From Rudanella paleaurantiibacter (GTDB lineage: Bacteria; Bacteroidota; Bacteroidia; Cytophagales; Spirosomataceae), in NCBI RefSeq assembly GCF_009184635.1, contig NZ_WELI01000002.1:186001-250000 (forward strand): 64,000 nt of DNA, written 5' to 3'. The translations under genes were made by a program, and so were the position numbers. The first letter of the stretch is position 1. Every line of letters begins with the position of its first letter. The notes under the pieces are model-generated. The model did no database searches. It worked only from the letters and a program-made list of their open reading frames with translations, and was not told the origin of the DNA. Positions 52,833-63,836 of this stretch are shown here, in pieces.

Positions 52833-55800
52833 ATGGCTGAACGCATTAGCTACGGCAAAACCTGGTGGGGGCAGCAATGGCTGGGCGCCCTAAGCCAGAT
52901 TGATGAAGCCAACCGACTGCCCCGTGGCAAAACCTACGCCAACAAGGGAGCTGTGCAGGGTCTGAAAATCGATAACAACCAGATCAGTGCCTCGGTAAAG
53001 GGCTCTAAGCCCCGACCTTACAAAATCAAACTGCTGGTTCCTCTGTTTTCGGACGCCGAAAAGAAATCGCTTTTGACCGAGATTGAGGAAAACCCGGTTA
53101 TTCTGGCGCAACTCCTGAACCGGCAGCTACCACCCGAACTGGTCGAGTTTGCCGAGCAGCGAGCCATTGCTTTATTCCCTCAGTCGTTCGACGACCTGGG
53201 CATGGGTTGTTCCTGCCCCGATCATGCCATTCCCTGCAAACACCTCGCGGCTGTGGTTTACGTGATTGCCAACGAAATAGACCGGAATCCGTTTCTGGTG
53301 TTTCAGTTGAAGGGGCTGGATATTCTGGAAGAGCTCAAAAACGTTCAGGCCGATGTGGTGAGCGGCACTCTGAACGAGGTACTCTCGCTGCACGACCTGG
53401 GCACGGAGGATTTGCCCGACGACGAGGACTGGAAACCCGACGATGAGGCCCGTGCTCAACTCGACTACGCGACCATTCCGCCCCTCGCCGATCAGCTGCT
53501 CGACCTGTTGCAACCCACCACTACGTTTACCAAAAGCGATTTTTTAAAATCGCTGGCCCGGTCGTATACCCTGTTCAGCAAGCCCCTCGACGAGCAACCC
53601 AAAACCAAAGCCATTCTGGCTAAGCGCCGGGCGAGTGGCCTGTCGAACGACGCGCGCAGTCAGGCCACCGGCACCTCGCCCGACCTGAGCGATAGCATCG
53701 AGCTGCAGCTTGATGAGTTCATGGACATCAAAAAAATCGGGGTTTATAGCGAACACGGCGAACCCCGGTCCTTTACCGATTACACCCTCGGCGACCTCAC
53801 CGGCTGGCTCCAAAGCCTGAACGAGGCCGACTTTGCCGAAATGAGCGATTCGGTGCGGGGTTTGTATTTAGCCACACAGTTTTCGGCAGCGCTGCTTCGG
53901 CGCGGAGCCGTGGTGCCGCAACTCCTGCGCGTAGGTCCAACCGAAGAATACTACCGGGTACGCTGGATGCCCGCTACCCTCAACGAGGCCGTGCGGCAGC
54001 AAACCGACCTGCTGGCGGCTCAGTTGCCTCCCTTGCTGCTTACGCTTCGCTGGCAGAAAGAGTGGCTGGCTCTACCCGGCCGCGAGCAGGTGCTCACACT
54101 TTGCTCGCTGCTAATGCGCCCTGCCATTCACGACACCACCGTGGAACTGTGGGAGCGTTGGCCCCTCGAAGACGCCGACCGGCTCTTTTTCGGGGTTGAA
54201 ACCATCCGGTTTGAGGGTTTCGGGAAACGCGAAATGCCCCTGGCCATGCAACTGTGGCTCAACGATTTTTTCCTGAGCCACAAACGCTTTGTCCCGGTAT
54301 TAGCCGTAGAAGACTCCGAAACCGGCGCGTCCACACCGGGCGCATCCACGCCGGGCGAGGAGTTTCGAATCAGCCTGCTCGTACGCGATAGCGAGGCCAG
54401 CCCTATAGCCCCGCCCACCCCAGCCAAAACCGGTCGGGGGGCGCGCAAGGCTCCGGCAACTCCGCTAACGGCTCCGCCCATACCCTTGGCCGACATTCTG
54501 CGCGAAAAAGCCCACGCGAGTATCCGAATGGCTGTTTTGCAGGATCTGATTGTGCTCTCTCGCCATTTTCCCGACCTCGCTCAGCTCACCCGTACCGACA
54601 GCCCCGCCTACCTCTACTACAAATCCGACGATTTTGTGAAGGTACTGCTGGATATTCTGCCCCGGATGCAGCTGCTCGGTATTACGCTGCTCTTGCCCAA
54701 ATCACTTCGGCATTGGGTACGGCCGTCGGCGGGGGGGCGGCTCCGGGCCAAAAGCAAGAGTGCGGTCGTTGGCGATTCGTTTATGCGGCTCGACGATATG
54801 CTGGCCTTCGATTGGCAGGTGGCTATCGGAAACGAGATGGTGAGCGTAAAAGAGTTTCAGCGGCTGGTGAACAACACAACCGGCCTGGTCAAAATCAAGG
54901 ATCAATACGTGTTGGTCGACCCGTCGGAGTTGAACAAACTGTACAAACAACTCGAAAACCCACCCGAACTAACCGGGGCCGAAATGCTCAGAGCGGCACT
55001 CTCGGAGGAGTACAAAGGCGGGCGCGTGGGTCTGACAGACGATGTACGCGCCATTATCCGGCAGTTTACCGATGCTCAGGCGCAACCCCTACCCGATTCG
55101 CTACGGGCCAGTTTGCGGCCGTATCAGCACCGGGGCTACGACTGGCTGATCAAAAACACAGCCCTCGGCATGGGTAGTTTACTGGCCGACGATATGGGTC
55201 TGGGCAAAACCTTACAGGTGATTGCTTTACTGCTCAAATTCAAGCAGGAAGGTCGGTTCGACAAGCAAAAAGGGCTGGTGGTACTCCCCACAACCCTGCT
55301 CACCAACTGGCAGAAAGAGATTACCAAATTTGCCCCCGACCTGAAACCGTACATTTACCACGGCCCCGGCCGCAAACTCCCCACTACCGACACAACCGGC
55401 GCGGACACGACCGATACCAAAGCTACCCCGAAGAAAAAGGAAAAAGGCAAGCAGTCGGCCTCGTACGACCTGCTCCTGACCACCTACGGCGTGGTTCGGT
55501 CGGATCTGGAGAAGCTGAAGAAAACCACCTGGGCAACGGTCATCATCGACGAAGCGCAGAACATAAAAAACGCCGATACTGAACAAACCAAAGCCGTGAA
55601 AGCGCTCAAAGCCCCGATTCGGATTGCCCTGAGCGGTACGCCGGTCGAAAACCGGCTGTCGGAGTTCTGGAGCATTATGGATTTTGTGAATAAAGGGTAT
55701 CTGGGTGGCATTGGTAAGTTCAACGAGGAGTTTGCCCGGCCTATTCAGCAGGAGCGCGACCACCAGAAACTTGATCAGTTCCGGCGCGTCACGAGCCCTT

Positions 55801-56594
55801 TCTTGCTCCGGCGCGTAAAAACCGACAAAACCATCATCAGCGACCTGCCCGACAAGATCGAAAATAACCAGTATTGTTCACTCACGCCCGAGCAGGCATC
55901 GCTATACGAAAATGTGGTGCAGGAAAGTATCCGGGCAATTGAGGACAAAGACGGTATTGCCCGGCGCGGGTTGGTGCTGAAACTCATGACGGCCCTCAAA
56001 CAGATTGGCAATCACCCGTACCAATACCTCAAAGAAGGAAACCGCACCGGCGGGCCGGCCGCTCCCAGCCTTTCGGGCAAGGCCACATTATTGCTCAATC
56101 TGCTCGAAACCATCTACGCCAACCACGAGAAGGTACTGATTTTTACGCAATACCACGAGATGGGTGTGTTGCTCCAGCAGTTTATCAGCGATCAGTTTGG
56201 GCAGGAGCCGCTGTTTTTGCACGGTGGTACGAGCCGCCCCGAACGCGACCGCATGGTGGAGCAGTTTCAGAAGAACCGTTCCGATCACACGTTTATTCTG
56301 TCGCTCAAGGCGGGCGGCACCGGCCTAAACCTGACGCAGGCTAACCACGTCATTCACTACGACCTGTGGTGGAATCCGGCCGTGGAAGCACAAGCCACCG
56401 ACCGGGCGTTTCGGATTGGCCAAACCAAAAATGTGCTGGTGTACCGGCTCATGAATCAGGGCACGCTCGAAGAAAAAATCGACGCGATGATCCGCAGTAA
56501 AAAAGAACTGGCCGACCTCAGCGTAAAGACTGGCGAAACCTGGCTCGGCGACCTCAGCGACGAGGATTTGAAGGAACTGGTGAGTTTGGGGTAA
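52833..56594 (+). CDS. SWIM zinc-finger SNF2-family helicase
   Basis: A 1253-aa protein. A SWIM zinc finger is at C126, C128, C135 and H137 (GCSCPDHAIPCKHLAA). A middle region of about 500 residues follows with a Ser/Thr/Pro-rich linker near 495-540. The SNF2 ATPase has DDMGLGKTLQ near 785 (Walker A), IIDEAQNIKN near 905 and SGTPVENRLSEFW. The helicase C half (about 1060-1200) ends with KAGGTGLNLTQANHVIHYD and QATDRAFRIGQ. It is a DNA-dependent ATPase that moves along or remodels DNA-protein complexes. Its last 30 codons (56499-56595) are repeated at 59867-59963 after the kinase gene. Confidence 0.94.
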   Translation: MAERISYGKTWWGQQWLGALSQIDEANRLPRGKTYANKGAVQGLKIDNNQISASVKGSKPRPYKIKLLVPLFSDAEKKSLLTEIEENPVILAQLLNRQLPPELVEFAEQRAIALFPQSFDDLGMGCSCPDHAIPCKHLAAVVYVIANEIDRNPFLVFQLKGLDILEELKNVQADVVSGTLNEVLSLHDLGTEDLPDDEDWKPDDEARAQLDYATIPPLADQLLDLLQPTTTFTKSDFLKSLARSYTLFSKPLDEQPKTKAILAKRRASGLSNDARSQATGTSPDLSDSIELQLDEFMDIKKIGVYSEHGEPRSFTDYTLGDLTGWLQSLNEADFAEMSDSVRGLYLATQFSAALLRRGAVVPQLLRVGPTEEYYRVRWMPATLNEAVRQQTDLLAAQLPPLLLTLRWQKEWLALPGREQVLTLCSLLMRPAIHDTTVELWERWPLEDADRLFFGVETIRFEGFGKREMPLAMQLWLNDFFLSHKRFVPVLAVEDSETGASTPGASTPGEEFRISLLVRDSEASPIAPPTPAKTGRGARKAPATPLTAPPIPLADILREKAHASIRMAVLQDLIVLSRHFPDLAQLTRTDSPAYLYYKSDDFVKVLLDILPRMQLLGITLLLPKSLRHWVRPSAGGRLRAKSKSAVVGDSFMRLDDMLAFDWQVAIGNEMVSVKEFQRLVNNTTGLVKIKDQYVLVDPSELNKLYKQLENPPELTGAEMLRAALSEEYKGGRVGLTDDVRAIIRQFTDAQAQPLPDSLRASLRPYQHRGYDWLIKNTALGMGSLLADDMGLGKTLQVIALLLKFKQEGRFDKQKGLVVLPTTLLTNWQKEITKFAPDLKPYIYHGPGRKLPTTDTTGADTTDTKATPKKKEKGKQSASYDLLLTTYGVVRSDLEKLKKTTWATVIIDEAQNIKNADTEQTKAVKALKAPIRIALSGTPVENRLSEFWSIMDFVNKGYLGGIGKFNEEFARPIQQERDHQKLDQFRRVTSPFLLRRVKTDKTIISDLPDKIENNQYCSLTPEQASLYENVVQESIRAIEDKDGIARRGLVLKLMTALKQIGNHPYQYLKEGNRTGGPAAPSLSGKATLLLNLLETIYANHEKVLIFTQYHEMGVLLQQFISDQFGQEPLFLHGGTSRPERDRMVEQFQKNRSDHTFILSLKAGGTGLNLTQANHVIHYDLWWNPAVEAQATDRAFRIGQTKNVLVYRLMNQGTLEEKIDAMIRSKKELADLSVKTGETWLGDLSDEDLKELVSLG

Positions 56595-56595
56595 A
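56499..56595 (+). repeat. 97-bp direct repeat, copy 1 (end of the SNF2 helicase gene)
   Basis: Equal in length to the copy at 59867-59963, with 94 of 97 positions identical. It encodes the last residues of the helicase from KKELADLS to the stop. The three differences (CTG/CTC, GTG/GTC, TTG/CTG) are all synonymous. Confidence 0.92.
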
Positions 56596-56640
56596 GAATC
56601 TCTGTATATTAGTCGCCTATTGCTGTTCTAAATTACACTC

Positions 56641-57480
56641 ATGCCGTATTCAGCCGAAATCAGCCGCGAAGCGCCCAGTTGCTTCGTATTCGTCATCGAT
56701 CAATCCGGGTCTATGTCCGACAAGTTCGTTAGCATCGGCACACCAATGTCTCAGGCCGTCGCCGATACCGTCAACCGGTTTCTGCAACAGTTAGTCATCA
56801 TGTGCGCCAAAGCCGACGGTGTCCGGGACTACTACTACATCAGCGTCATCGGTTATGGTGCTGGTGGCGTCCGGCCTGCCTTTACGGGTGGCCTTGCCAA
56901 TGTAGAGCTGGCCCCGCTTTCACAGATCGCCAACAACCCCGCCCGTATTGAGGAGCGGACCAAAAAAGTATCGGACGGAGCTGGAGGACTTGTCCAAACC
57001 ACCATCAAATTTCCCATCTGGTTCGACGCCACGGCCGCCGGTGGCACCCCAATGCGTGAAGCTTTCAGCAAAGCCAACCAAATCATTGAGCGCTGGCTAA
57101 CCGAACACCCAAACTGTTTCCCCCCCGTTGTCATCCACATTACCGACGGTGAGTCCACCGATGGTGACCCCTCGGCAGAGATGCAGCACTTGCAAAGCCA
57201 GGCCTCGTCTGATGGCAATATCATCCTGTTCAACGTTCACACGTCAGCCCGCAGCACAAACCCCATTTCGTTCACCGCATCAGCCGCCCAGTTACCCGAC
57301 CAGTATGCGTTGATGCTATATAATGGCGCATCCGTTTTACCTGATTTTATGCGGAAAACTGCGATGGAAGTGTTAGGTTATGAATTGAATGAGGGGGCCA
57401 AGGCATTCGTTTTAAACGGTGATATTGACCTTGTCGTCACCGCCATTGAAATAGGTACTCGTCCTAAACTCCTGCGGTAA
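56641..57480 (+). CDS. von Willebrand factor A domain protein (TerY-like)
   Basis: A 279-aa cytoplasmic protein, almost entirely a vWA domain. MIDAS motif DQSGS at D20, S22 and S24 (FVFVIDQSGSMSDK), a Thr in GGTPMREAF near 140, and ITDGESTDGDP near 165 for the fourth metal site. TerY-type vWA proteins act with a PP2C phosphatase and a kinase in the TerY-P triad described for Ter stress systems. It starts 46 bases after the helicase stop and its stop overlaps the next start by one base (TAATG), so the genes are translationally coupled. Confidence 0.88.
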   Translation: MPYSAEISREAPSCFVFVIDQSGSMSDKFVSIGTPMSQAVADTVNRFLQQLVIMCAKADGVRDYYYISVIGYGAGGVRPAFTGGLANVELAPLSQIANNPARIEERTKKVSDGAGGLVQTTIKFPIWFDATAAGGTPMREAFSKANQIIERWLTEHPNCFPPVVIHITDGESTDGDPSAEMQHLQSQASSDGNIILFNVHTSARSTNPISFTASAAQLPDQYALMLYNGASVLPDFMRKTAMEVLGYELNEGAKAFVLNGDIDLVVTAIEIGTRPKLLR

Positions 57481-58238
57481 TGTTACAATGCCATTATTGG
57501 GTAGCCACAGTTCCGAAGAAGGGAAGTACTGAAGAAGAGAACGAAGACTTCTATTTCGCTGACCATTCAGCCGAGTCCGAGGGCATACCTTCTGTGAAGT
57601 TCGCACTCTCCGATGGCGCGACGGAGAGTGCATTTTCTGGCATCTGGGCTGAATATCTGGTCATAAACTTTGAAAAACACTCGTTTGACAAAACTCTTGA
57701 ATTAGCTATCGCTGACTGGAATCGCGAAACGCAGAAGCAGGAACTACCTTGGTATTTGCATAACAAAATCTTAGACGGTGCCCATGCTACTTTTTTGGGC
57801 GTCGAACTCAACTTAGTAGAACACCAAGCAAACGTAGTAGCCGTTGGTGATACTAACTTTTTTCAAATTAGGGATAACTTTCTCATCAAAGCCTTTCCAG
57901 TTGATGAACCATCAGGCTTCAACAACCAGCCAAACTTATTAGCCAGTGTTACAACCCAGCAGACGCCACTGGACGAAATCAAGTACGAATCAAAGAACTT
58001 AGCCCTCAATGCTGGCGATACGCTTATTTTAGCGACCGATGCCCTAGCGCACTGGCTTTTAATTCGTTGCACTAAAGACAACAAGCCTTGGTCGACACTG
58101 ATTGAGATGACGCAGTCCGACGACTTCGAGCAGCAATTCGTTAATTGGTTAATGCAAACGCGTCAGGATAAAGCAATCAAAAATGACGACACGACCCTGA
58201 TTATAATCAAACTGACCGATGGCCTTTCCAAGGGGTGA
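57480..58238 (+). CDS. PP2C-type serine/threonine phosphatase-like protein
   Basis: A 252-aa protein of PP2C fold. Metal-binding acids are present: ENEDFYFAD near 20-28 and FALSDGATES with D45-G46, then VAVGDTNFF near 123, LILATDALAHW near 183 and NDDTTLIII near 237. It is the phosphatase member of the vWA-PP2C-kinase set. The gene starts inside the stop of the vWA gene and ends 20 bases after the start of the kinase gene, consistent with tight coupling. Composition is more AT-rich than flanking genes. Confidence 0.85.
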   Translation: MLQCHYWVATVPKKGSTEEENEDFYFADHSAESEGIPSVKFALSDGATESAFSGIWAEYLVINFEKHSFDKTLELAIADWNRETQKQELPWYLHNKILDGAHATFLGVELNLVEHQANVVAVGDTNFFQIRDNFLIKAFPVDEPSGFNNQPNLLASVTTQQTPLDEIKYESKNLALNAGDTLILATDALAHWLLIRCTKDNKPWSTLIEMTQSDDFEQQFVNWLMQTRQDKAIKNDDTTLIIIKLTDGLSKG

Positions 58239-59856
58239 TGAGTACAACCAAGCAGTACAAAACCCGAACATTAGCTTTACAGACGTTGCCCTTCAGCGTA
58301 GTCAGGTCGAAACTCAACTATTCGGCCTGCCTAAACCCTATTCGGGTGGTTTCACTGTCACCTACAAACTACAAAGCCCCAACGGTAATTGGGCAGTGCG
58401 CTGCTTTACCCGTCAAGTACGTGACCTTGAAAAACGCTACAAGGCGCTATCTGCACTAGTTCAGTCTAACCCTAGTTTGGCTCCTTATTTTGTTGAGGCA
58501 AACTATCTGCCATCCGGTATTCGCATAAATGGACAACTGCATGGGATTATAAAAATGAGATGGGTTGAAGGAGATCCACTCAATCTTTATATCGGAAAAA
58601 TTTATCAACAAAGTCATGTTGTAGAAGGCATTTTGACAACCTTTGTTGGCCTTGTTCAGAAAATGGAGGCTGCTGGCATTGCGCACGGTGACCTACAACA
58701 CGGCAACATCATCATTAGTGAAGGCAAGATGTTGCTTATTGATTACGACGATATATACTTACCTGGCATACCAGGCCTTAAAGCTAATAGCGAAGGACAG
58801 CCTAACTACCAGCACCCCAAACGAACCCAACAGAATTATGGCAAAACCATCGACCGATTCTCAGCTATAGTTATCTATCTTGGTTTAAAAGCAGTTAAAC
58901 TCAAGCCAGCTCTATGGGCTAAGTATGACAACGGCGAAAACATCCTGATTAAAAACACCGACATTGCCAATTTGAGTGTGTCCCCGCTTATGCAGGAATT
59001 GTCGGCTATTACAGAGTTAAAGCCGTTGGTCGACCGTTTTAAGGGTATATGTTATTTGTCGTTTGACCAAGTTCCTACACTCAATGAGTTTCTAGAAGGT
59101 GCTTTTACTTACAGCACAACCAACACTGGCACTATTACCGTCAGAAGTTCGCAGTACGCTGTCCTTGATGGACGAAAAAAAGGCTCAATTCTGGAACACT
59201 TTGGTGAACGCGTCGAGGTAATCGGCCGTATTGACGCCCTTCGAGAAAGCAAGACCCGCTACGGTGCCCCCTACGTATTTTTGAACTTTGGCGTTTATCC
59301 GAATCAAACATTTACGGTGGTGATTTGGTCTGACGGCTTGGAGCAGCTTTCTGCTAAAGGCCTAAGCATTAACAGTTTCAAAGGCAAGTGGGTTAGCGTA
59401 ACCGGCGTTGTTGGTAGCTATAAAGAAGTACCTCAGATCGCCGTCGAAACAATCTCCCAAATACAAATACTTGATAATGAAAAGGTAGCTACGGACAAGC
59501 TTAACCCTAAGTCAATTCCACAACCTGCTCCACAGCCAGTTCCTCAGCCTAGACCGGTTACTCCGGTAAGCAGCGTTCCCAAGAACCCGCCCGCGCCGAA
59601 AGTACCTACACCTAAGCAGGGAGAAGAAGTATTCAACACATTGTATGGTAATCGTCCGGTAACACCAGCACCAACGCTCCAACCATCTCCGCGTCATCCC
59701 CCCCAATCCCAACCTATCTCCCCCAAACAAACGCGTCAACCCGTTAAACCCACGGCGCCGACTGTAACCTCAACTCCTCCAAACTCTTCAACCAATAAGC
59801 AACCCTCCCCACCCAAAAAAGGCTTTTGGAGAATATTAGCGGACTTCTTCAGCTAA
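58219..59856 (+). CDS. Protein kinase-like protein with OB-type domain and proline-rich tail
   Basis: A 545-aa protein. The kinase-like domain (about residues 40-290) has catalytic loop HGDLQHGN (H156-N163) and metal motif DYD (175-177), but the VAIK lysine position reads AVR at 59-61, so ATP binding may differ. Residues about 306-420 look like an OB-fold nucleic-acid-binding domain (VEVIGRIDALRES, YVFLNFGVYPNQTFTVVIWS, GKWVSVTGVVGSYKEVPQIA). A proline-rich linker (425-530) ends in KKGFWRILADFFS, a possible membrane-association or docking tail. Third gene of the triad. Substrate unknown. Confidence 0.85.
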   Translation: MAFPRGDEYNQAVQNPNISFTDVALQRSQVETQLFGLPKPYSGGFTVTYKLQSPNGNWAVRCFTRQVRDLEKRYKALSALVQSNPSLAPYFVEANYLPSGIRINGQLHGIIKMRWVEGDPLNLYIGKIYQQSHVVEGILTTFVGLVQKMEAAGIAHGDLQHGNIIISEGKMLLIDYDDIYLPGIPGLKANSEGQPNYQHPKRTQQNYGKTIDRFSAIVIYLGLKAVKLKPALWAKYDNGENILIKNTDIANLSVSPLMQELSAITELKPLVDRFKGICYLSFDQVPTLNEFLEGAFTYSTTNTGTITVRSSQYAVLDGRKKGSILEHFGERVEVIGRIDALRESKTRYGAPYVFLNFGVYPNQTFTVVIWSDGLEQLSAKGLSINSFKGKWVSVTGVVGSYKEVPQIAVETISQIQILDNEKVATDKLNPKSIPQPAPQPVPQPRPVTPVSSVPKNPPAPKVPTPKQGEEVFNTLYGNRPVTPAPTLQPSPRHPPQSQPISPKQTRQPVKPTAPTVTSTPPNSSTNKQPSPPKKGFWRILADFFS

Positions 59857-59866
59857 CTTCTAACCC

Positions 59867-59963
59867 AAAAAAGAACTCGCCGACCTCAGCGTAAAGACTG
59901 GCGAAACCTGGCTCGGCGACCTCAGCGACGAGGATTTGAAGGAACTGGTCAGTCTGGGGTAAA
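59867..59963 (+). pseudogene. 97-bp direct repeat, copy 2: orphan SNF2 helicase 3' end
   Basis: A second copy of the last 31 codons and stop of the SNF2 helicase gene, in frame but without the rest of the gene, 10 bases after the kinase stop. It is followed directly by a strong terminator, as expected for the original gene end. Only three differences from copy 1, all silent, show that both copies were under coding constraint when they diverged. Confidence 0.9.
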
Positions 59964-59975
59964 TATGCCCCCCAA

Positions 59976-60023
59976 TAAGCAACAGGCGTCTGCTCTCCAA
60001 ATTGGGCAGACGCCTGTTGCTTA
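59976..60023. terminator. Perfect 18-bp terminator hairpin
   Basis: Arms 59976-59993 and 60006-60023 are exact complements with a 12-nt loop. It lies between the triad/helicase remnant and the convergent secreted dehydrogenase gene. The T-tract is short, so its efficiency is uncertain. Confidence 0.8.
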
Positions 60024-60056: not shown

Positions 60057-63000
60057 TTACCGACTGATAACCAACCGCAATGAGGCCTTGCGGCCATCGG
60101 CCGGGTTAACCGAAATAAGATATACCCCATCACTGTACGTTGTAGTGGATAGGGTGTACTGCGTTTCGATCTCCGTCAGAACAGTTTTCTGGTATAAGAT
60201 TCGGCCGGTCAGATCCGTCAGTCTCAAGTTGGTGGGTTGACCATTGGCCGCTCTGAGGTCAATACTGACGCTATTTTGGGCCGGGTTAGGATACAGTTTA
60301 AAGCCCTCATCAGTCGGCTCAGCGAACGAGTCGAATACCGGGATCACCAGTCCGTCCCCCGCCATTCGGGCACCCGCAACCGCGCACTTAACGGTCTGCA
60401 CAACCCACTGCTGAGCTATAGTCCCATTGACCGTGTATTGAACAATCTCCACGTTTTGAGCCGAACTGGCCCCTCGCTGATCCATGGCGCTGCCGGAGTG
60501 TCGGGCTGTCAGCAAATAATACCCCTGCGTATCGCGCGTGATTCGCCATTGCTGACTGTAGCCGGTATTATTGGTCCATTGAATCAGGTTGGTATAATCG
60601 GCTGTGGAACCGCCACTCACGTCGATCGATTTACCGCTATTCACGTTCTGTAAACGGTAGTACCCTTCCGGGTTCAGCAGAATTTTCCACTGCTGAGAAG
60701 CCCGCCCTGAATAGGCCTGCTGCCGAATAATGGCCCCATCGTCTTTCGATTCGTTGGATACACTAACGGCTTTACCTCCATTGCGGGCCGAAATACGGTA
60801 ACAACCTGCTGACGAGAAGTTCAGTTGGGTATTGGTGTTGATACAGGTGCGCTGCTCAATGCTCCACTGTTGCGCCTGCGTGCCGTTGGCGGTGAACTGA
60901 ATAATTTCGCCACCTTCGTCCACATTGCTACCGCGCACATCCAGCCTTTTTCCTGAATGCCGGGCCACGAGTTGGTAATAGCCCTGGGCGTCGTACTGGA
61001 GTTTCCATTGCTGGTTATTTCCTCCCCCGTACGTCCATTGCTGGATAGCGGCATAATCAGCCGTCGAACTACCGGCTACATCCAATACTTTACCACTATG
61101 ATTGGCTACTACCTGATAGTAGCCGTTGGACGTTGCTACAAATTTCCATTGCTGCCAGGCCGCATTAGCGTCGGTTCGCTGCCGGACGGTTGCCCCATCG
61201 GCTAACGAGCCATTTTCCACGCCCAGCACCTTACCGCTGACCCGAGCCACCAGCCGATAACAGGCATTGGCCACGGGAGTCAGTGAGACAGAGACAGGAG
61301 TTGCCGGGGTGGCGCTCGTTTCGACGCCCCCTGTCCAGGCGGTCCCCCGGCGGGTGTACACCCGGAAAAAGTATTTCTGTCCGGCGGTCAGGTTTGTGAC
61401 CACCAGGCTGGTTGCCACGCCCTGATAAACCACCTTGCCCCCTTCAAACGCAGCTCCAGTACCGGTAAAGCTGGCATCCTGCGCGTAAACGAGATCAACC
61501 GGCCGGGTTGTGAAGCCACTCCCCGCTTTCGCAACTACCAGAACGTTATCATAAGCAACCGAGGGCGGAGTCCAGTTTAGCCGAACCGCGTTGGTTAAAG
61601 TAGTTGCCTGCAAATTACTGATTGCCAGGCTGGGTGAATTACAGTCTGGGTAAATCTTCACCGAGTCACGGGCAGTCAGCCCACCCCGGTCGGTAACCGT
61701 CAATTGAATGAGATAGTAGTACGTTTCGCCATCGCACCCCACAGGCGAAACATTCACCGTGGGCGAGGCCGTGGTCAGTACCGGTTCGCGGTGTTCATGG
61801 TTATTGTGCCGGAGCGTCACCTGCCACGCATACGTCAGGCTCGGAACGTCATCGTCGGTAACGGTTGCGGTAAGGGTGTACTGACTTTCGCGGTCGAGGG
61901 GGTACAGGGCGTTATTGACCGGATTGGTGATTTTCGCCGTAGGGGCCGGATTATTGACGGAGACTTGTACGGTTTTTGCGTCGCTCAATCCACGCCCATC
62001 GCTCACGGTCAGGCGCACCGTAAAGCCCTGGCTACTGGTACTGGTAAACACCTTAGTGGGGCTGGCGAGCGTTGAGGTGGTACCATCGCCAAAGTCCCAG
62101 GCGTAGGTAAGAGGGTCCCCATCGGGGTCGGAAGAGGCATCACCCCGAAAGGCGACCGTCAGCGGAGATGGGCCTGTCAGCGCGGATGCGGTAATGGCGG
62201 CCACCGGTGGCTGATTGCCCCCGTAGCTGATTTTCAGAAGCTCACCCGTGTTGATATTGACGTAGTACAGCGCCCCATCGAGCGCGTTATATTCCAGATC
62301 AACAATCCCGTTACCTCCGCCGTTGGGCAGAAACTCCCGCACCTGAGTCACGGCCCCGTTGGCGTCGAGCGTGGCCGCCCGAATCCAATTCGCTCCGTAA
62401 TCGGCAAAGTAGTAGGTATTCCGCCAGTTTGCGGGGAACGCGGTGCCTGCATAATAAGCACCACCTGTTGAGCAGTTGCCCCGGAAAGGTGTGCCGGGTA
62501 CGCCACTCGCTGTGCCTAAAGTAGAGGTCGTCGCTACCGATCCGTTGAACATTGGTGTACGGGCCACATCGGCCCCGTGTTGCCAGTCGAGGGCGGGCCG
62601 GGCATGAATGTACCGACGCTGTAAGCCGGGCAGTGCCTGCCCACTACACGGGTTGTTCACCGCCTGAACGGGATTGGTAGGTTGCTTCAGTAAATCAGCA
62701 AACGTCAGATACGGTTTATTACAGGTATTCGTAGGGTTGGGTTCGTCTCTATTCTCAAGAGTTTGGGCGGCTGTGGCGTAGCTACTATGCGTTTCGAGCC
62801 CTTCGAAAATAGGCCAGCCCGCGTTTTCGCCCCCTTGCCGAATTACGTGCATATCTTCCCACACGTTCCAGCCAACATCGCCCACCAGCAAGGTGCCCGG
62901 GTTGCCATCGGCCGGGTTAGTGCTGCCGGTATTGGGCCAAATCGTCATACGGTAGGGGTTCCGCAAGCCCAATGCCCACACGCGCGATTTAGCCGAGCGG

Positions 63001-63836
63001 GGGCTGGTTCCATCGTAGAACGGGTTGCTGGGCAAACCATCGCCCGTGTTGGGGTCCATTCGCAAAACTTTACCACAAAACGAGTTCACCATCTGCGACC
63101 GGAAAGCGCCCACATTTTCATTGGCCCGCATGATACCGTCGTTGATCGCCTGCTGGAAATACGTTTCTGGGGCACTGCCTTTGTCGGTACTGCTGTAACT
63201 GGCATTATCGCCCGTGGTGAGGAGTAAAGTGCCATCCCGCCCAAACAGCAGGGTTCCGCCCGCGTGCGACTCATGGGTCAGTGGCACGCCGGTCGATTTG
63301 GTTTCGCCCAGTAACACTTTGCGGCTGCTTACGCTGGCCGCGAGGGTACCGTTGTTAGTAAGCAATTGATAACTGCTCACCCGGCTGATGGTGGCCTGGT
63401 AGTACGTGTCTGTGGTAACACTGTAGTTGGTTGTCCCGAAATTCAGCAAGTGGTGCCGGTCCACTACATAAAACAGATAAATTTTGCCGTTGGTGCCGAA
63501 GTTAGGGTCGAGGCAAACGCTTAACAGGCCAAAATCACGCCAGTTACCCACCTCCTCACTGATGTCGAGCACCGGCGTAGTTTGCTTCACGTACTGACTG
63601 CCGTTCCAGTTCGACACCCAGATTTTACCGCTTTTCTCCCAGACAAACTGTCGTTGCCCGTCGGCGGTAAAAATGACGCCCATCGGGGCTGTATAACCCG
63701 TTTGCGTTTTTGATTGAAGGAAGCCGCTGGGGAGCTGAGCGAGAGCCATCGGGCTCGAAAACAGGCCACCCATCAGAAGGGCGACCACGCAGATGAATAG
63801 CCGGATGGTAGCCAACCGGCAGGAGCAGATAAACAT
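60057..63836 (-). CDS. Secreted sorbosone/glucose dehydrogenase-like protein with PKD, FN3, ricin-like and T9SS domains
   Basis: A 1259-aa protein with a signal peptide (ATG at 63836, hydrophobic RLFICVVALLMGGLFSSPMA). Residues about 40-530 form a PQQ-type sugar (sorbosone) dehydrogenase beta-propeller with GLRNPYRMTIWP and GENAGWPIFEG. A PKD domain at about 542-630 (YAWDFGDGTTS) is followed by a second PKD-like module and an FN3-like region (about 732-850). Two ricin-type lectin regions (about 857-1010 and 1010-1145) repeat GYYQLVARHSGKRLDVRG-like blocks. The last about 80 residues (FKLYPNPAQNSVSIDL) are a type IX secretion sorting domain. The protein is expected on the cell surface or released and probably oxidises a sugar. 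Confidence 0.92.
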   Translation of the reverse strand: MFICSCRLATIRLFICVVALLMGGLFSSPMALAQLPSGFLQSKTQTGYTAPMGVIFTADGQRQFVWEKSGKIWVSNWNGSQYVKQTTPVLDISEEVGNWRDFGLLSVCLDPNFGTNGKIYLFYVVDRHHLLNFGTTNYSVTTDTYYQATISRVSSYQLLTNNGTLAASVSSRKVLLGETKSTGVPLTHESHAGGTLLFGRDGTLLLTTGDNASYSSTDKGSAPETYFQQAINDGIMRANENVGAFRSQMVNSFCGKVLRMDPNTGDGLPSNPFYDGTSPRSAKSRVWALGLRNPYRMTIWPNTGSTNPADGNPGTLLVGDVGWNVWEDMHVIRQGGENAGWPIFEGLETHSSYATAAQTLENRDEPNPTNTCNKPYLTFADLLKQPTNPVQAVNNPCSGQALPGLQRRYIHARPALDWQHGADVARTPMFNGSVATTSTLGTASGVPGTPFRGNCSTGGAYYAGTAFPANWRNTYYFADYGANWIRAATLDANGAVTQVREFLPNGGGNGIVDLEYNALDGALYYVNINTGELLKISYGGNQPPVAAITASALTGPSPLTVAFRGDASSDPDGDPLTYAWDFGDGTTSTLASPTKVFTSTSSQGFTVRLTVSDGRGLSDAKTVQVSVNNPAPTAKITNPVNNALYPLDRESQYTLTATVTDDDVPSLTYAWQVTLRHNNHEHREPVLTTASPTVNVSPVGCDGETYYYLIQLTVTDRGGLTARDSVKIYPDCNSPSLAISNLQATTLTNAVRLNWTPPSVAYDNVLVVAKAGSGFTTRPVDLVYAQDASFTGTGAAFEGGKVVYQGVATSLVVTNLTAGQKYFFRVYTRRGTAWTGGVETSATPATPVSVSLTPVANACYRLVARVSGKVLGVENGSLADGATVRQRTDANAAWQQWKFVATSNGYYQVVANHSGKVLDVAGSSTADYAAIQQWTYGGGNNQQWKLQYDAQGYYQLVARHSGKRLDVRGSNVDEGGEIIQFTANGTQAQQWSIEQRTCINTNTQLNFSSAGCYRISARNGGKAVSVSNESKDDGAIIRQQAYSGRASQQWKILLNPEGYYRLQNVNSGKSIDVSGGSTADYTNLIQWTNNTGYSQQWRITRDTQGYYLLTARHSGSAMDQRGASSAQNVEIVQYTVNGTIAQQWVVQTVKCAVAGARMAGDGLVIPVFDSFAEPTDEGFKLYPNPAQNSVSIDLRAANGQPTNLRLTDLTGRILYQKTVLTEIETQYTLSTTTYSDGVYLISVNPADGRKASLRLVISR

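What the first reader, a model, noticed from the sequence alone, without database searches (positions are those of the whole stretch)
56499..59963. vWA-PP2C-kinase triad bracketed by a 97-bp direct repeat of the SNF2 helicase 3' end
The end of the helicase gene occurs twice: in the intact gene (56499-56595) and again as an orphan fragment right after the kinase gene (59867-59963). The three-gene triad lies exactly between them. The three differences are all synonymous in the helicase frame, so the copies diverged while coding. This argues against a simple local slip and for an element that carried a homologous helicase end and replaced or rebuilt the target gene end on entry. The original terminator now stands behind the orphan copy. 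This looks like integration into a conserved gene end, as known for tRNA genes, but with no integrase present.
Basis: partly seen in the sequence, partly recalled or inferred. Interest (0 to 1): 0.85.

Follow-up and report, generated by a model that had tools for sequence, protein, structure and literature searches.

The report
Defence genes inserted by gene-end duplication
A three-gene bacterial stress/defence module was inserted behind a helicase gene together with a second copy of the helicase's end, and related bacteria show the same scar around small toxin-antitoxin genes, which points to a repeated way of gaining such genes without a dedicated integration enzyme.

Summary
Relative G001 has the empty site. 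The scar recurs. Of 64 helicase orthologues examined (66 found), 10 carry an orphan copy of their own helicase end downstream, behind different cassettes: TerY-P, HicA-type, PIN, DUF433/DUF5615, AAA_14/DUF4143. Three stand in front of older cassettes. Orphan ends of six other genes also bracket such cassettes. But 12 other TerY/kinase loci show no such scar. Orphan lengths vary (about 26-272 nt), and intact and orphan ends differ mostly synonymously (18:2 codons in the 8 best-preserved pairs). This fits an incoming fragment [gene end + cassette] entering through one-sided homology (circularised single crossover, or homology-facilitated illegitimate recombination), not a fixed att site. Precedents exist: restriction-modification 'insertion with long target duplication' and E. 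coli gene-end duplications. New variant of a known kind; the mechanism is inferred, not shown.

The parts
52833..56594 (+). SNF2-family helicase gene (1253 aa), host gene whose 3' end is duplicated
   Evidence: Pfam SNF2-rel_dom, DUF3670, Helicase_C; orthologues in the family
56115..56474 (+). stretch of the helicase gene nearly identical to relative G001 (4/360 differences against 9% over the aligned region), just before the repeat; possible recombination tract
   Evidence: chosen after seeing the data
56499..56595 (+). copy A: 3' end of the intact helicase gene
56641..57480 (+). TerY-type vWA gene
   Evidence: PADLOC TerY PDLC02224 E 2e-97, residues 1-279 of 279; Pfam VWA
57480..58238 (+). 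PP2C-type phosphatase gene
   Evidence: PADLOC PP2C PDLC02222 E 2e-39, residues 8-246 of 252
58219..59856 (+). Ser/Thr kinase gene of the STK_OB model
   Evidence: PADLOC STK_OB PDLC02223 E 2e-106, residues 1-437 of 545
59867..59963 (+). copy B: orphan helicase 3' end, contiguous with the native downstream DNA
   Evidence: downstream sequence aligns with that behind the single helicase end of G001, 86% over 582 nt
59976..60023 (+). hairpin, probably the helicase terminator, now behind the orphan copy
   Evidence: fold z -11.3, also in G001; not listed by the terminator scan
60057..63836 (-). native downstream neighbour (GSDH, PKD and ricin-type lectin domains), directly behind the helicase in G001

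Best explanation
The triad arrived on a DNA fragment from a relative in which it stood directly behind the same helicase gene. The fragment shared only the helicase end with the recipient. It integrated by RecA-type recombination in that shared end, without removing the resident end, so the gene was rebuilt and the resident end was left behind the cassette. Two routes give this product: the fragment circularises and enters by a single crossover, or one end recombines homologously and the other joins illegitimately. Shown here: bracket, empty site, diverged coding copies, recurrence with other cassettes and other genes, stacking. Inferred: donor arrangement, circular or linear route, uptake of DNA.
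For: Empty site in G001, and DNA behind the orphan matching DNA behind the relative's helicase in 8 of 10 pairs tried. Orphan helicase ends in 10 of 64 loci with different cassettes (9 of 63, plus the window). Stacking: VapBC-like cassette + orphan + Fic/Doc-type cassette in G126 where G157 has the Fic/Doc-type one directly; HicA-type cassette + orphan + DUF433 start in G115; DUF433 + orphan + AAA_14 gene in G192. Variable orphan length and a mirror case at the convergent gene. Same scar at other genes; 0 of 30 glycosyltransferase control loci. Codon differences 54 synonymous to 21 nonsynonymous in 15 pairs, 18:2 in the 8 pairs at 90% identity or more. A G001-like tract just before the repeat. 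Precedent: in an E. coli conjugation assay built to give linear DNA with one homologous end, 56 of 60 Lac- clones gave the duplication-type PCR product and 14 sequenced ones were gene-end duplications of 109-950 bp, explained by circularisation and single crossover (PMC3240628, passages).
Against: No genome with helicase plus triad and no orphan was found, so the donor is hypothetical. Orphans before helicase stops are short (up to 147 nt), whereas the E. coli duplications ran 109-950 bp; random trimming should give some longer ones. Classical HFIR usually deletes recipient DNA (PMC3240628), so the linear route fits less well. Several cassettes sit at the site without a helicase orphan. The tract 56115-56474 is G001-like but the last 120 nt of the gene are not, which one simple event does not explain. 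HicA plus PIN loci alone do not exceed the control significantly (6/60 vs 0/30, P 0.17). Two of 15 pairs have more nonsynonymous than synonymous differences. Twelve other TerY or kinase loci lack the scar. Competence was not tested.
Confidence: 0.66

Rival explanations
1. Site-specific integration into the helicase 3' end by a tyrosine or serine recombinase acting in trans, as for cis-mobilisable elements (recalled); the repeats are attL and attR.
For: Repeats bracket cassettes at a conserved gene end, the gene is restored, cassettes stack, no integrase inside.
Against: Left border of the orphan varies from about 26 to 147 nt although it should mark the crossover; the same scar appears at six other genes and at the convergent neighbour's end in L109. 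Recombinases elsewhere in the genomes were not searched.
Confidence: 0.1
2. Active insertion with long target duplication driven by the cassette itself, as proposed for restriction-modification genes; the duplicated target is copied at insertion.
For: RM systems are reported to insert with long and variable target duplications of the order of 100 bp (PMC3874152, passages; PMC3031569, passages). Similar length range, similar addiction-type cargo.
Against: Copies made at insertion would start identical and the orphan would then drift; the differences are instead mostly synonymous. The cassettes share no common protein family in the searches made.
Confidence: 0.14
3. Tandem duplication of the gene end in place, with the cassette entering later.
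For: Simple; short direct repeats arise often.
Against: Synonymous excess; in all 10 helicase cases genes of several unrelated kinds lie between the two ends; no locus with two ends and no cassette was seen among the 64.
Confidence: 0.05
4. Repeats are kept similar by gene conversion, so the synonymous pattern says little about origin.
For: Both copies lie within a few kb and could recombine.
Against: Well-preserved and decayed orphans both occur, as expected of insertions of different age.
Confidence: 0.05

Closest known systems
Insertion with long target duplication of restriction-modification genes (Nobusato 2000, Furuta 2010; seen only through citing passages)
   Same: Insertion of addiction-type genes, not linked to a known mobile element, between long, variable direct repeats of about 100 bp
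   Different: Here the repeats are gene 3' ends, the copies are diverged mostly synonymously, cargo is TA, AAA_14/DUF4143 or TerY-P, and cassettes stack; whether the RM cases share these traits I did not see
Homology-facilitated illegitimate recombination and the E. coli single-crossover gene-end duplications (PMC3240628, passages)
   Same: One-sided homology; product has a duplicated gene end of variable length bracketing foreign DNA
   Different: Laboratory products; here natural, recurrent, mostly shorter, and found around defence-type cargo
T6SS orphan immunity arrays in Vibrio cholerae (PMC5361080, passages)
   Same: Proposed successive insertion anchored on conserved upstream DNA, older modules and a displaced gene 3' end kept downstream
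   Different: There the old effector is displaced; here the host gene is unrelated to the cargo and is rebuilt intact
TerY-P triad (PADLOC models; also in H. pylori islands, PMC4978471, passages)
   Same: TerY, PP2C and Ser/Thr kinase genes side by side
   Different: Here a bare three-gene unit; the H. pylori clusters carry further DNA-processing genes
Integron gene-cassette arrays (recalled)
   Same: Stacked small cassettes, newest next to the anchor
   Different: The anchor is a gene end and several different genes serve; integron integrases and attC sites were not searched for

Membership tests
TerY-P triad | TerY, PP2C and STK_OB proteins adjacent and co-oriented | tested here: met
TerY-P triad | defence or stress function | not testable with these tools
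   no assay; database label only
Insertion with long target duplication | insert bracketed by direct repeats of about 100 bp present once in the empty site | tested here: met
Insertion with long target duplication | repeats derive from one target copied at insertion | tested here: inconclusive
   differences mostly synonymous, which argues for two alleles instead; gene conversion not excluded
HFIR or single-crossover integration | homology on one side only, variable junction on the other | tested here: met
   variable orphan borders; sequence before each orphan unrelated to the helicase
HFIR or single-crossover integration | donor DNA with gene end plus cassette | tested here: inconclusive
   cassettes without orphan exist at the site, but no donor for the triad was found
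Integrase-dependent island at a gene or tRNA end | recombinase gene in the element | tested here: not met
   only three genes between the repeats, none a recombinase
Integrase-dependent island at a gene or tRNA end | recombinase acting in trans | not tested
   recombinases elsewhere in the genome not searched; no tRNA gene in the window
Integrase-dependent island at a gene or tRNA end | constant crossover point | tested here: not met
   left border about 26-147 nt before the stop
Integron | intI and attC sites | not tested
   no dedicated search made

The most novel reading that the evidence does not exclude
Conserved gene ends act as general docking sites for an integrase-free traffic of addiction and defence cassettes: each cassette travels with a piece of the end of its current host gene, enters any relative through that shared end, rebuilds the gene, and builds integron-like arrays whose orphan ends record the order of arrivals and let RecA delete them again.
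Probability: 0.4. Interest if true: 0.8.

Novelty: new variant of a known kind. Interest (0 to 1): 0.62.

Why it matters
How toxin-antitoxin and defence modules without any transposase or integrase move is poorly understood. Orphan gene ends give a simple, searchable scar that names the anchor gene and separates one-sided homologous entry from site-specific integration. If general, many chromosomal TA and defence modules spread through ordinary recombination in conserved gene ends, and stacked orphans give their order of arrival.

Tried and rejected
Rejected: a helicase-specific att site (variable borders, other host genes, mirror case at the convergent oxidoreductase in L109). Largely rejected: in-place duplication (synonymous excess). 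Tried without result: deciding which of A and B is native in the window. At the three sites A matches G001 at two and B at one, and A differs from G001 at about as many sites as from B. Tried without a clear result: nearest-relative mosaic along other cassette-bearing helicases (G116 and G155 dropped out because the script found no matching frame); only the window showed a striking tract. Tried: Smith-Waterman search for decayed orphans behind six cassette loci without a helicase orphan, none found, though one of them (G216) has a repeated terminator-like hairpin (L168). Tried: TerY or kinase loci outside the window. The order search found 8 of 390 genomes at E <= 1e-40, the window's included, and named genomes gave three loci. 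Gene-end repeats were sought in 12 such loci (L061-L065, L298-L304; L304 and L063 short), 117 ORFs, none found. A -7-like TAnnTTTG motif (consensus recalled) scores higher than letter shuffles in the 50 nt before first cassette genes (sum 62 against 52.6, 0 of 500), but in 4 of these 12 loci the best match lies in the helicase coding end itself, so it does not show own promoters. Sigma-70 and terminator scans gave nothing above chance. Structure prediction was not used.

Selections to know: 64 of the 66 best helicase hits (those scoring 80 bits or more) were examined; G207 and G209 were left out, and four loci have less than 2 kb downstream. Weaker tail matches in L103 and L128 were not counted. 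The 15 pairs leave out L176, L213 and L228 (indels or frame breaks) and the terminator-only repeats L168, L174, L175; an earlier version had a frame slip in L117 and border codons, corrected. The DUF433 and AAA_14 locus sets were seeded from helicase-site cassettes, so their 3 of 7 and 7 of 16 are not independent of the helicase finding; HicA (4 of 30, one of them the helicase site) and PIN (2 of 30) are the unseeded sets.
Full report
The repeat is real. Positions 56499-56595 and 59867-59963 share 97 nt with three differences, all synonymous in the helicase frame. It is the only direct repeat of at least 40 nt reported in the window, and a query around the helicase end matches only these two places in the genome. 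Between the copies lie three genes that match the PADLOC models TerY, PP2C and STK_OB, the kinase over residues 1-437 of 545, that is, a TerY-P triad. G+C is 54% in TerY, 45% in PP2C and 46% in the kinase gene, against 57% in the helicase gene and 56% in the downstream gene.

The empty site exists. In G001 of the same genus, a single helicase end (483-aa C-terminal part 98% identical) is followed directly by the hairpin and by the homologue of the window's next gene. The hairpin folds strongly in both genomes, although the terminator scan does not list it. The sequence behind the window's orphan copy aligns with that behind G001's only copy at 86% over 582 nt, and no match to the triad was found there. 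G002 and G003 of the genus have no close match to the triad kinase (E <= 1e-20; three weaker kinase hits in G002).

The triad is not what carries the repeat. A full-length, 50% or better homologue of the kinase occurs in 3 of 222 family genomes: the window's own, G121 and G169. In the latter two the triad sits elsewhere, also as a bare three-gene unit, without a flanking gene-end repeat. Ten more distant TerY or kinase loci show none either.

The helicase end is a recurrent insertion site. I took the helicase C-terminus to 222 family genomes and read the 3' flanks of 64 of the 66 best hits (window). Nine of the 63 fetched loci, and the window, have an orphan copy of their own helicase end 0.36-3.3 kb downstream. 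They fall in five genera. What lies between differs: the triad (window), a short protein plus PIN protein (G126, G173), DUF433 with DUF5615 (G117, G215, G211; in G117 the second gene reads in two frames), DUF433 alone (G192), HicA-type pairs (G115, G187; the HicA frame of G187 holds a stop), and AAA_14/DUF4143 with two small ORFs (G203) (Pfam was run on one member of each kind, both PIN cassettes included, the others rest on similarity). Other loci have such a cassette at the same place without a detectable helicase orphan: L102, L103, L109, L122, L133 and a fragment in L118.

Cassettes stack. In G126 the VapBC-like cassette is followed by the orphan and then by DNA matching a Fic/Doc-type cassette; in its relative G157 that cassette follows the helicase directly. 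In G115 the HicA-type cassette is followed by the orphan and the start of a DUF433 cassette that in G117 follows the helicase directly. In G192 a DUF433 gene is followed by a short orphan (26 nt exact, 36-45 nt with mismatches and a gap) and an AAA_14 gene. New arrivals therefore seem to stand next to the helicase and push older ones away. In 8 of 10 orphan/relative pairs the DNA behind the orphan aligns with the DNA behind the relative's helicase; the exceptions are L149/L148 and L106/L107, and in L101/L103 the match starts only in the AAA_14 gene.

It is not specific to the helicase. Among 305 ORFs tested in these loci, the window and four triad loci for a copy of their own end within 4 kb, the only hits were two helicase genes and, in L109, the convergent oxidoreductase: its native end stays next to the helicase while the intact gene lies beyond the AAA_14 cassette. 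Most fetched loci hold too little of the helicase gene to count in this test. Loci of cassette families in genus g33 gave flanking repeats in 7 of 16 (AAA_14), 4 of 30 (HicA), 3 of 7 (DUF433) and 2 of 30 (PIN), against 0 of 30 for glycosyltransferase controls. The AAA_14 and DUF433 sets were seeded from the helicase site; pooled P is 0.006, HicA plus PIN alone P 0.17. Gene ends involved outside the helicase site are a pyrB-like carbamoyltransferase in two genomes, glutamine synthetase in two, an M42 peptidase, a sodium:solute symporter and a DUF167 gene (Pfam on one of each). L168, L174 and L175 repeat only a terminator-like hairpin. In L163, L173 and L193 the block runs past the stop into the terminator-like sequence.

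The copies diverged as coding sequence. Over 15 intact/orphan pairs there are 54 synonymous and 21 nonsynonymous codon differences; in the 8 pairs at 90% identity or more, 18 and 2. Under in-place duplication with a free orphan, a synonymous share near 0.42 is expected, P 1e-5 for the well-preserved set and 1e-7 for all. Codons are not independent events, the null is crude, and gene conversion is not excluded. L173 and L106 run against the trend (1:7 and 4:6), as decayed orphans may, and L193 is 1:1.

A possible trace of recombination stands beside the window's repeat. Against G001 the aligned region differs at 385 of 4265 sites (9%), but at 4 of 360 in 56115-56474, where G002 differs at 61 of 360 (Fisher P 7e-11, chosen after the fact). 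The last 120 nt differ at 8 sites. This fits exchange near the junction but does not identify the donor.

Mechanism. The incoming molecule needs only the gene end in common with the recipient. In an E. coli conjugation assay built to give linear DNA with one homologous end, 56 of 60 Lac- clones gave the duplication-type PCR product and 14 sequenced ones were gene-end duplications of 109-950 bp, explained by circularisation and single crossover; true HFIR was rare (PMC3240628, passages). That product has the architecture seen here. A mechanism akin to HFIR was proposed for stacked T6SS immunity genes with a displaced effector 3' end (PMC5361080, passages). Restriction-modification genes, another addiction type, are reported to insert with long, variable target duplications (PMC3874152 and PMC3031569, passages); the original papers were not read. 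I therefore read the window as one case of one-sided homologous entry through a conserved gene end. Shown: structure, recurrence, empty sites, stacking, coding divergence. Inferred: donor, route, uptake of DNA, any benefit.

In print: the listings (in part capped: 15 of 17, 15 of 49 and 10 of 70 papers listed in 55, 56 and 71) showed no paper whose title or abstract start describes TA or TerY-P cassettes bracketed by orphan ends of conserved genes. These searches cover only the held library and the words used.

Noticed in passing
L109 (G190), 85-141 and 1549-1779 downstream of the helicase stop: Mirror case: the end of the convergent Gfo/Idh-type oxidoreductase is left as an orphan next to the helicase, with an AAA_14/DUF4143 gene between it and the intact gene.
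   Followed up: partly
L126/L163 (G203), L109 (G190), L122/L168 (G216): AAA_14/DUF4143 genes at this site start closely behind a long palindrome; a like palindrome stands behind the helicase in G213, which has no cassette.
   Followed up: no
L179 (G186) and L181 (G203): HicA-type cassettes behind a pyrB-like gene, each with an orphan carbamoyltransferase end (85 and 74 nt).
   Followed up: partly
L159 (G188) and L161 (G207): DUF433/DUF5615-like cassettes directly behind a NuoH-like gene (name recalled) in two genomes, without a flanking repeat of 24 nt or more; may be another docking gene or an older insertion.
   Followed up: no
50 nt before first cassette genes, e.g. window 56591-56640: TAnnTTTG-like motifs score above letter shuffles, but in 4 of 12 loci the best match is the helicase end itself, so the gene end might even supply a promoter element.
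   Followed up: partly
window 56115-56474: Nearly identical to G001 while the aligned region as a whole differs by 9%.
   Followed up: partly
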